Shown here: one piece after another, positions 18,654 through 19,314 of the stretch | Layout: each line of letters begins with the position of its first letter | Numbering within the stretch: the stretch's first letter is position 1 | Source: Clostridia bacterium | GTDB taxonomy: Bacteria; Bacillota; Clostridia; TANB77; CAG-508 | Direction of reading: 5' to 3' | Assembly: GCA_017409455.1 (NCBI GenBank) | Contig: JAFQSS010000032.1 | Location: forward strand, 1 to 38,540 | Length of the DNA stretch: 38,540 bases | The notes under the pieces: model-generated | Databases searched by the model: none | What the model was told of the DNA's origin: nothing | Seen by the model: only the letters and a program-made list of their open reading frames with translations | Program-made: the position numbers and the translations under genes

Positions 18654-18728
18654 GGCGCCTTAGCCAAGCGGTAAGGCACGAGTCTGCAAAACTCTGATTC
18701 ATCGGTTCGATTCCGATAGGCGCCTCCA
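18654..18728 (+). tRNA. tRNA-Cys (GCA)
   Basis: The 75-nt cloverleaf has acceptor arms GGCGCCT and AGGCGCC, the T-loop GGTTCGATTCC, anticodon GCA within TCTGCAAA, and an encoded CCA end. Its last 21 bases are duplicated 174 bp downstream, as expected for a tRNA used as an integration site. Confidence 0.96.
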
Positions 18729-18783: not shown

Positions 18784-18888
18784 GGAATCGAAAAGGAGTA
18801 GTCAAGTTTCAGACTGGTCTGGAGCCAGGCTGAAACGCAGACAAAAAATGTCTAGTAGACATTTTTTACGACGCGGCTCGCCGATTCC
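18784..18888. other. Structured scar between tRNA-end repeats
   Basis: This 105-bp stretch holds GGAATCG/CGATTCC at its ends. Inside are a 12-bp hairpin (18806-18836, GTTTCAG...CTGAAAC) and a near-perfect palindrome (18843-18867, AAAAAATGTCTA with its complement). It is more GC-rich than its surroundings and has no coding potential. It may be the degraded remnant of an element that entered at tRNA-Cys. Confidence 0.5.
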
Positions 18889-18903
18889 GATAGGCGCCTC
18901 CAA
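18882..18903 (+). repeat. tRNA-Cys 3'-end repeat, copy 2
   Basis: This is an exact 22-base copy of 18708-18729 with no tRNA body upstream, so it cannot encode a tRNA. It is probably the distal att half-site. Confidence 0.75.
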
Positions 18904-18932
18904 CAAAAATGGTCAATCATAAAAAAATTTAT

Positions 18933-18961
18933 TTGACATATAATAAATAATGTAGTATACT
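18933..18961 (+). promoter_or_regulatory. Promoter of the putative antitoxin RNA
   Basis: Consensus TTGACA (18933-18938) and TATACT (18956-18961) are separated by 17 bp. The only thing downstream is a non-coding stretch of about 86 bases ending at the hairpin at 19018-19053, so a small stable RNA is predicted. Confidence 0.8.
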
Positions 18962-18979
18962 ATATTTAGCTTATAAGCA

Positions 18980-19017
18980 AAGTAATTTAATGTAAATCAT
19001 TTGTAAAAATGTAGCAC
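18980..19017 (+). repeat. Direct repeats in the antitoxin RNA
   Basis: Three blocks (18980-18994, 18998-19005, 19012-19017) match 19104-19118, 19125-19132 and 19137-19142 exactly, in the same order, with different spacing. They play the role of the DRa/DRb pairing repeats of par loci. Confidence 0.8.
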
Positions 19018-19053
19018 AAAAAAAGACTAGGAGTGCAAGTCCTAGTCTTTTTT
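19018..19053. terminator. Shared bidirectional terminator
   Basis: GACTAGGA pairs with TCCTAGTC around a seven-base loop, flanked by an A-run and a T-run, so it works on both strands. It ends the plus-strand RNA and the convergent toxin mRNA. Confidence 0.9.
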
Positions 19054-19058
19054 CTGTC

Positions 19059-19127
19059 TTAATCATCAAATTCTTTCACAATCAAAAGAATGACAATTAA
19101 TGTAAGTAATTTAATGTATTTCTTCAT
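19059..19127 (-). CDS. Putative Fst-like membrane toxin peptide, 22 aa
   Basis: The peptide begins MKKYIK, continues with an aliphatic stretch LLTLIVILLIV and ends KEFDD. A basic start, one short transmembrane helix and a charged tail are typical of Fst/Ldr-type type I toxins, though this one is shorter than Fst (about 33 aa). A strong AAGGAGG lies 15-21 bases upstream of the ATG at 19127. Between them is a tiny upstream frame (19124-19135, MYK and stop) whose TGA overlaps the toxin ATG, so translation may be coupled. A small hairpin (AGCCT/AGGCT, 19152-19171) sits just upstream of the binding site. The gene converges on the antitoxin RNA and shares its terminator. Confidence 0.65.
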   Translation of the reverse strand: MKKYIKLLTLIVILLIVKEFDD

Positions 19128-19142
19128 TTGTACATATAGCAC
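19104..19142 (+). repeat. Direct repeats over the toxin start
   Basis: This is the second set of the three repeat blocks. They cover toxin codons 4-8, the overlapping uORF stop/toxin start, and the edge of the Shine-Dalgarno, which are the places where antisense pairing would block translation. Confidence 0.8.
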
Positions 19143-19176
19143 CTCCTTCCTAGCCTATTTGCCGAAAGGCTTTATT

Positions 19177-19205
19177 AGTGTACAACATTTTTGCATAAAT
19201 TTCAC
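19177..19205 (-). promoter_or_regulatory. Candidate promoter of the toxin mRNA
   Basis: On the minus strand GTGAAA (19200-19205) and TACACT (19177-19182) are separated by 17 bp, each matching four of six consensus bases. The leader would be about 43 nt. It is weaker than the antitoxin promoter, as expected for such pairs. Confidence 0.45.
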
Positions 19206-19247
19206 CCTAAAATATAATTTGTAATTTGTAAGTTTCTATATAATATA

Positions 19248-19277
19248 TTTAAAAGAGCCATAAATAGCTCTTTTAAA
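19248..19277 (-). terminator. Terminator of the ABC transporter operon
   Basis: TTTAAAAGAGC pairs with GCTCTTTTAAA around an eight-base loop. It lies 37 bases past the stop of the ATP-binding gene and separates it from the toxin leader. Confidence 0.6.
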
Positions 19278-19314
19278 TAAAAGGGGATGTTTATGCTAAT
19301 TGCTTGTTCTACAA

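What the first reader, a model, noticed from the sequence alone, without database searches (positions are those of the whole stretch)
18933..19205. Putative Fst/par-like type I toxin-antitoxin locus next to tRNA-Cys
Seen directly: a minus-strand 22-codon frame with a basic start, one aliphatic helix and an acidic tail, behind a strong AAGGAGG. A convergent plus-strand promoter (TTGACA-17-TATACT) drives a ~86-nt non-coding RNA. Both stop at one bidirectional hairpin, and three ordered repeats (15, 8 and 6 bases) put antisense complementarity over the toxin start. Established: Fst/par loci have convergent RNAs, a shared terminator and direct repeats. Inference: this is a chromosomal member with a shorter peptide. 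A tiny upstream frame (MYK) whose stop overlaps the toxin start adds a possible translational-coupling layer I do not know from Fst.
Basis: partly seen in the sequence, partly recalled or inferred. Interest (0 to 1): 0.88.

Follow-up and report, generated by a model that had tools for sequence, protein, structure and literature searches.

The report
New par-like type I toxin-antitoxin family
A tiny gene for a 22-residue hydrophobic peptide is paired with a convergent antisense RNA that should block its translation; it belongs to a large, apparently unnamed toxin-antitoxin family of uncultured gut Clostridia, and close relatives of it sit in small mobile DNA units behind a cysteine tRNA gene.

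Summary
The locus is real and conserved. The 22-codon frame (19127-19059, minus), the plus-strand promoter, the 14-bp two-way hairpin and three ordered repeats (15, 9, 6 nt) are there. Predicted antitoxin:mRNA pairing is -35.6 kcal/mol; 0 of 1000 shuffles reach it. Of 132 profile hits, 123 have a close downstream hairpin and enough sequence. In these, own antitoxins pair at -28.3, non-cognate ones at -15.2 kcal/mol; among copies of one genome the cognate wins 93 of 100 comparisons. Starting from terminator and antitoxin -35 box alone, 88 of 122 sites carry the peptide. It works like par/Fst, but the toxin is not an Fst by sequence: P/D/S/TxxxG/C motif 0 of 123, C-terminal Trp 1 of 123, no PF13955 hit over cut-off. 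The MYK coupling frame is not conserved. Within the samples searched, the family is confined to one order. A sister version of the window's locus has moved between genera: 96-99% identical DNA where a chromosomal gene is 69-74%, partly in units bounded by the tRNA-Cys 3' end; the window's own copy shows no recent transfer. Toxicity and transcription are untested.

The parts
19059..19127 (-). toxin ORF, 22 codons + TAA, MKKYIKLLTLIVILLIVKEFDD
   Evidence: homologs; pN/pS 0.22-0.41 against three relatives
19142..19148 (-). Shine-Dalgarno AAGGAGG (14 nt from toxin ATG, 6 nt from the MYK ATG)
19124..19135 (-). MYK upstream frame ATG TAC AAA TGA; start not conserved
19018..19170 (-). predicted toxin mRNA (start inferred 7 nt after the -10 box)
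   Evidence: inference; no RNA data
19177..19205 (-). toxin promoter candidate GTGAAA-17-TACACT (weak, 8 of 12)
   Evidence: 95 of 122 relatives have a site of 10/12 or better, shuffles 21 of 610
18933..18961 (+). antitoxin promoter TTGACA-17-TATACT (11 of 12)
   Evidence: 109 of 123 relatives 10/12 or better, shuffles 42 of 615
18968..19053 (+). predicted antitoxin RNA, about 86 nt, non-coding
   Evidence: inference; no RNA data
19019..19053 (.). shared bidirectional terminator hairpin, 14 bp, 7-nt loop (CUUGCAC on the mRNA strand)
   Evidence: (I2); GACTAG..CTAGTC type in 72 of 123 relatives
18980..19017 (+). antitoxin arm: repeats of 15, 9 and 6 nt that pair with the mRNA
19104..19142 (-). 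target arm in the mRNA, from the end of the SD over both start codons to codon 8
   Evidence: the best repeat spans the start codon in 107 of 123 relatives
18654..18728 (+). tRNA-Cys; anchor of small units in relatives
18882..18903 (+). second copy of the tRNA-Cys 3' end (CGATTCCGATAGGCGCCTCCAA), 174 bp after the first, just before the antitoxin promoter

Best explanation
A type I toxin-antitoxin locus with par-like regulation and an unrelated, unnamed toxin family of about 20-24 residues. The plus-strand antitoxin RNA (about 86 nt) is made from a strong promoter and ends at the hairpin it shares with the toxin mRNA. It would meet the mRNA at the complementary terminator loops and zip along the ordered repeats, covering the mRNA from the end of the Shine-Dalgarno sequence through the start codon to codon 8, so that the peptide is not translated. 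If the antitoxin runs out, for example after loss of the locus, the peptide (basic start, hydrophobic core, acidic end) is made and would act on the cell's own membrane. Shown by computation: anatomy, conservation, cognate pairing, selection on the peptide. Inferred: transcription, first contact at the loops, translation block, toxicity, membrane target.
For: 132 distinct profile hits in the fetched loci, 123 kept with a close hairpin. Own antitoxin/toxin repeat score 17.9 against 10.7 non-cognate and 10.3 shuffled; own toxin in the top 5% for 93 of 123. Pairing energy -28.3 against -15.2 kcal/mol; no other toxin binds better for 69 of 123 antitoxins; 93 of 100 same-genome comparisons favour the cognate, mean gap 12.1 kcal/mol, in 25 genomes where I had mapped two or more loci by hand. 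Both promoters conserved. U-turn-like YUNR in the mRNA terminator loop in 63 of 123, 30% in shuffled loops; antitoxin loop 26 of 123 against 23%. A terminator + antitoxin -35 pattern, which uses no toxin sequence, leads to the peptide at 88 of 122 sites. Purifying selection: pooled pN/pS 0.39 over 1794 non-independent pairs.
Against: No RNA or growth data. The window's toxin promoter is weak. SD-to-ATG spacing of 14 nt is long; relatives mostly have 6-12. SD hiding by the 5' leader is no better than with shuffled leaders (0.72 against 0.72). Cognate preference is not seen everywhere: for 23 of 123 antitoxins more than 3 other toxins bind better, 30 of 123 miss the top 5% by repeat score and 25 of 123 have more than 5 of 100 shuffles as high. 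The repeats overlap the coding region, so pN/pS also reflects antisense constraint. Some copies have a stop inside the toxin frame (L008/L009, L055).
Confidence: 0.86

Rival explanations
1. A true member of the Fst/par family, only shortened and diverged beyond sequence recognition.
For: Same layout: convergent RNAs, shared terminator, repeats over the start, YUNR in the mRNA loop.
Against: P/D/S/TxxxG/C motif 0 of 123; C-terminal Trp 1 of 123; PF13955 over cut-off in 0 of 55 genomes, and none of its 9 weak places is one of my toxin loci; Pfam, NCBIfam, PHROGs and PADLOC give nothing significant. Such a layout could arise more than once.
Confidence: 0.1
2. A small membrane peptide held under antisense control that is not toxic: a regulator or stress peptide.
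For: Toxicity is untested; the family occupies chromosomal places in many copies.
Against: Multi-copy, orthogonal, partly horizontally moving loci with a strong antitoxin promoter are what toxin-antitoxin loci look like; some copies have stops in the toxin frame.
Confidence: 0.1
3. Translation of the toxin depends on the MYK frame (the ribosome starts at the well-spaced MYK ATG, stops at TGA and re-starts at the overlapping toxin ATG), as mok does for hok (that parallel is recalled).
For: The SD is 6 nt from the MYK start and 14 nt from the toxin start; ACAAATGA is invariant in the 6-sequence alignment; ATG or TTG stands at that codon in 9 of 13 clade loci (1 ATG, 8 TTG).
Against: No ATG/GTG/TTG at that codon in 4 of 13 loci, among them L003, which encodes the same peptide as most of the TTG loci; relatives at large mostly use ordinary spacing. 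ACAAATGA conservation is also explained by the antisense target.
Confidence: 0.2
4. A leader peptide with attenuator for a downstream gene.
For: Small frame followed by a terminator hairpin; one member matches ilv leader-peptide models weakly, E 0.036-0.21.
Against: No gene follows on the minus strand for it to control: the next features are two tRNA genes and a 416-residue frame on the plus strand; convergent promoter and repeats would be unexplained.
Confidence: 0.02

Closest known systems
par(pAD1) of Enterococcus faecalis and the Fst/Ldr family (review PMC7472228; its sections 1, 2 and 4 read)
   Same: Convergent mRNA and antisense RNA, shared bidirectional terminator, direct repeats giving antisense pairing over the translation start, YUNR in the mRNA loop, copies that need not cross-react.
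   Different: Toxin of 22, not about 33, residues, without the family's Trp and PxxxG-type motifs and without Pfam match; hiding of the SD by the leader not shown; other bacterial order.
fst-Sm/srSm of Streptococcus mutans (PMC3543317, passages seen)
   Same: Chromosomal, convergent, bidirectional terminator, two repeats, antitoxin about 70 nt.
   Different: 32-residue toxin with the conserved Fst motif.
Type I loci of Clostridioides difficile, CD2517.1-RCd8 and others (review PMC6563280; its sections 2 and 3 read)
   Same: Clostridia; convergent toxin and antitoxin genes; several on mobile elements; mostly cognate specificity.
   Different: Toxins of 34-59 residues, often with lysine-rich ends; no sequence link to this family was tested here.
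hok/mok/sok (recalled, no call)
   Same: A possible upstream frame overlapping the toxin start.
   Different: Upstream frame of three codons whose start is not conserved; antitoxin is convergent.

Membership tests
Type I toxin-antitoxin systems | gene for a small hydrophobic peptide with its own start signals, kept by selection | tested here: met
   117 of 123 have ATG/TTG/GTG at profile position 1; 85 of 123 are exactly 22 residues, pooled pN/pS 0.39
Type I toxin-antitoxin systems | antisense RNA complementary to the toxin mRNA | tested here: met
   (computed pairing only; the RNA itself is predicted)
Type I toxin-antitoxin systems | peptide is toxic and the RNA neutralises it | not testable with these tools
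   needs expression tests
Fst/par family | convergent promoters and shared bidirectional terminator | tested here: met
   the window's toxin promoter is weak
Fst/par family | direct repeats placing antisense pairing over the translation start | tested here: met
   best repeat spans the start codon in 107 of 123
Fst/par family | U-turn (YUNR) in the mRNA terminator loop (not in all homologs, PMC7472228) | tested here: met
   window loop CUUGCAC; 63 of 123 against 30% in shuffled loops
Fst/par family | helix at the mRNA 5' end and stem-loop hiding the SD | tested here: inconclusive
   94 leaders: mean z -1.28, 53 below -1, 23 below -2; SD pairing 0.72 against 0.72 with shuffled leaders
Fst/par family | Trp between membrane helix and charged tail (the pAD1 prototype itself has Val, PMC7472228) | tested here: not met
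   1 of 123 has Trp in the last 8 residues; the window has none
Fst/par family | P/D/S/TxxxG(C) motif in the helix | tested here: not met
   0 of 123
Fst/par family | match to Pfam PF13955 Fst_toxin | tested here: not met
   0 of 55 genomes over cut-off; it was over cut-off in none of the 14 control genomes either, so the control does not vouch for its sensitivity
Integrative unit at a tRNA gene (considered for the sister loci) | flanking copies of the tRNA 3' end | tested here: met
   sister loci L284, L285, L291: TA between two copies with both unit ends found by BLAST; L293: TA between two copies of TCGCCTCCA. Not met in the window: a second copy exists, but the TA lies outside the 174-bp interval
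Integrative unit at a tRNA gene (considered for the sister loci) | own or nearby recombinase | tested here: inconclusive
   none recognised by eye among the frames listed for the small units; L290 has a serine recombinase and a Mob_Pre gene between tRNA-Cys and TA

The most novel reading that the evidence does not exclude
The window's clade is the addiction part of a gene-cassette-like system anchored on tRNA-Cys: units of roughly 0.6-2.2 kb with a conserved left end, one or two genes, an optional 22-residue TA and a 96-bp right end that rebuilds the tRNA-Cys 3' end, stacking behind the tRNA and moving between genera without a recombinase of their own, with the TA punishing loss of the array. 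The window would hold an older or reduced state of it.
Probability: 0.4. Interest if true: 0.8.

Novelty: new variant of a known kind. Interest (0 to 1): 0.62.

Why it matters
It adds a large toxin-antitoxin family whose peptides lie near the short end of known type I toxins (19-38 residues is the range given in a passage of PMC3543317), in little-studied uncultured gut bacteria. Over a hundred natural cognate pairs, often several per genome, let one test how few bases set antisense specificity. The sister loci offer a natural case of a type I TA moving within tiny units at a tRNA gene, so the old question whether chromosomal type I loci stabilise DNA can be tested there directly.

Tried and rejected
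Rfam at gathering score: only the two tRNAs; at E <= 10 13 weak hits on 571 bases, all far below their gathering scores (best by bits FasX, 26.5 against 100, E 0.022), none of them an Fst-type RNA. Profiles: Pfam best E 5.3 (A1) and 0.21 (A3), NCBIfam best 0.036, PHROGs best 0.034, PADLOC none, PDB sequences none at E <= 10; 22-residue queries are weak ones. Fst Pfam model.

Viral contigs: one hit to the terminator/-35 pattern, no toxin frame, rejected as chance. Phage and plasmid records: no match to the window DNA, to the window peptide in plasmids or to the peptide of L053 in phages.

Breadth: profile A1 over 398 genomes of the phylum: the own genome plus three fragments of frames of 341-406 residues, rejected. 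Profile A3 over 391 genomes of the class: own genome, G247 of the same family, and G949, rejected after reading the DNA. Order sample: 105 of 287 genomes at E <= 0.1, weak ones not checked.

Rows dropped: one search collapsed 159 hits to 132 by identical context, so near-identical sister loci count once. Of the 132, 9 were dropped before the statistics (no close hairpin, or under 70 nt behind it; named), among them window-clade loci L063, L056, L075. L011, L012, L014 were read by eye and left out of A1 for lack of anatomy. For the peptide lengths, position 1 of the profile was taken as start; 6 of 123 have no ATG/TTG/GTG there. Of 122 pattern sites 34 had no profile score of 10 or more; some of these are variant or broken toxins, others look like chance.

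SD hiding and MYK coupling were tested and not supported. Structure prediction was not tried: the tool wants at least 30 residues.

Papers: searches listed nothing that I recognised as this family from titles and abstract starts (peptide strings, 0 papers; 0). Passages of PMC11264685 were not relevant. The library lacks most subscription journals; a 2010 survey of type I loci looked up by a recalled DOI was not held.

Full report
What is in the window. Toxin frame 19127-19059 minus, SD AAGGAGG 19148-19142; antitoxin promoter TTGACA-17-TATACT at 18933-18961 plus; a perfect 14-bp hairpin at 19019-19053 can serve both strands; repeats of 15, 9 and 6 nt lie in the same order in the antitoxin and in the mRNA. 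The predicted duplex runs in the mRNA from the last base of the SD over the MYK and toxin starts to codon 8: -35.6 kcal/mol, shuffles -16.1 with sd 2.9, none of 1000 as low. A simple repeat score is less striking for this one locus (4 of 100 shuffles as high). The toxin promoter is weak here (8 of 12).

Relatives. In the genus, 22 of 97 sampled genomes had a peptide match at E <= 10 and 133 of 210 a profile match at E <= 1; by my count of the genome rows, 62 of 210 reach E <= 1e-3. Not all weak ones are real. Reading the DNA showed the same anatomy with different sequence. In 158 loci, 132 distinct profile hits were taken; 123 have a strong hairpin within 30 nt of the stop and at least 70 nt behind it. 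Of these 123 peptides 85 have 22 residues and all but one have 18-24. Consensus of 42 members: MKxxxKLLxLxLIYLIxKxFxx.

Tests on the 123. Own repeat score 17.9, non-cognate 10.7, shuffled 10.3; own toxin in the top 5% for 93 of 123; 98 of 123 with at most 5 of 100 shuffles as high. Pairing energy own -28.3, non-cognate -15.2; for 69 of 123 antitoxins no other toxin of the set binds better, for 100 of 123 at most three do. Within 25 genomes in which I mapped two or more of these loci, the cognate beats the paralogue in 93 of 100 ordered comparisons, by 12.1 kcal/mol on average; the three tandem copies of L139 are clearly orthogonal. Antitoxin promoter of 10/12 or better: 109 of 123, shuffles 42 of 615; toxin promoter 95 of 122, shuffles 21 of 610. 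The best repeat spans the start codon in 107 of 123; the terminator is of the GACTAG..CTAGTC type in 72 of 123. Pooled pN/pS 0.39 (1794 non-independent pairs; 96% of those with synonymous differences below 1), window against three relatives 0.22-0.41. Against: 23 to 30 of 123 loci show no clear cognate preference, depending on the measure, and SD hiding is not above shuffles.

Independent entry. Of 122 sites in the 117 stretches, 94 have an SD-preceded frame of 15-40 residues ending at most 30 nt before the hairpin and 88 of these sites match the toxin profile. These genomes overlap those in part. One viral hit was chance; phage and plasmid records gave nothing.

Spread. The loci that I examined lie in the window's family (f1), apart from two tandem loci with terminator and antitoxin promoter in a second family of the same order (L157, G098). 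Samples of the phylum (398 genomes) and class (391) gave no real member outside the order.

Is it Fst? In layout yes, in the toxin no (membership table). So: works like par; not filed as an Fst member.

The MYK frame. Spacing favours it (6 nt from the SD against 14 nt for the toxin). But across the 13 clade loci that codon is ATG once, TTG eight times, and none of ATG, GTG or TTG four times, one of these in a locus (L003) encoding the same peptide as most of the TTG loci. It may be used in some; it is not a fixed part.

The tRNA-Cys neighbourhood. In the window the last 22 nt of the tRNA-Cys stretch recur 174 bp on, at 18882-18903, right before the antitoxin promoter. In relatives of this clade the TA sits behind the same tRNA-Gly/tRNA-Cys pair (L284, L285, L286, L290, L293, L294) or beside a 96-bp element ending in the tRNA-Cys 3' end (L284, L285, L287, L288, L291, L292); with the window that is 11 of 13, the exceptions being L289 and L295. 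The distance is about 5.5 kb in L290 and about 4 kb in L294. Where the element is present the aligned TA block ends 43-59 bp before it. Units with other cargo and no detected TA occupy the same place in other genomes: a methyltransferase (Methyltransf_25), and two gene families without Pfam match; a cupin gene accompanies the TA of L285. In 7 units the first gene starts 182-204 nt after the tRNA end. The unit-end query matches 29 of 204 genus genomes, not the window's own. Mobility of the sister version: TA plus right end 96-99% identical between G298 and G146, G374, G015, G144 and, for the TA part, G242 (three genera), while a chromosomal gene is 69-74% identical; other genomes are lower, G190 95%, G069 92%, G037 89%, G055 86%. 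On the same contigs: L285 against L293, carboxypeptidase 68% over part of its length but TA 94%; L285 against L290, NUDIX gene 70% but TA 99%. The window's TA is only 75% identical to these and its chromosomal gene 72%, so recent transfer is not shown for it.

Mechanism and function. Likely a translation block by antisense pairing, a membrane-acting peptide, and, for the clade at tRNA-Cys, help in keeping the inserted units. The first is strongly supported by computation, the second is inferred from sequence, the third is a guess supported by position and transfer.

Noticed in passing
L284:341-1044, L285:7391-8443, L291:10092-8079, L307-L315 (unit ends): Small units behind tRNA-Cys: in most a conserved left end, then cargo, then a 96-bp right end rebuilding the tRNA-Cys 3' end; no recombinase recognised inside.
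   Followed up: partly
window 18808-18903: The 96 nt up to the second tRNA-Cys 3' end fold strongly as single-stranded DNA (z -4.7 plus strand, -3.2 minus strand); the relatives' 96-bp right end does not (z -0.2 and -0.4).
   Followed up: no
L290:3147-6617: Serine recombinase and Mob_Pre gene between tRNA-Cys and the TA: perhaps a larger mobilisable element at the same site.
   Followed up: no
L002, L003, L004, L005, L061, L063: Sister loci carry two hairpins in a row between toxin and antitoxin instead of one (read by eye).
   Followed up: no
L139 (G247:C99:2300-3002): Three complete TA loci in tandem, about 320 nt apart, with orthogonal predicted pairing.
   Followed up: partly
L008/L009 (TAG) and L055 (TAA): Loci with a stop codon inside the toxin frame, apparently decayed.
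   Followed up: no
window 18919-18973: The antitoxin promoter region has many short matches (about 40-60 nt, 79-98% identical) in genus genomes without a full match to the locus; what lies behind them was not read.
   Followed up: no
window 19246-19279: 15-16 bp A+T-rich hairpin between the toxin promoter and the ABC transporter gene 19974-19315, likely that gene's terminator.
   Followed up: no
L194, L199, L255, L180, L209: Same terminator/promoter layout with more divergent small peptides, so the family may be wider than the profile.
   Followed up: no
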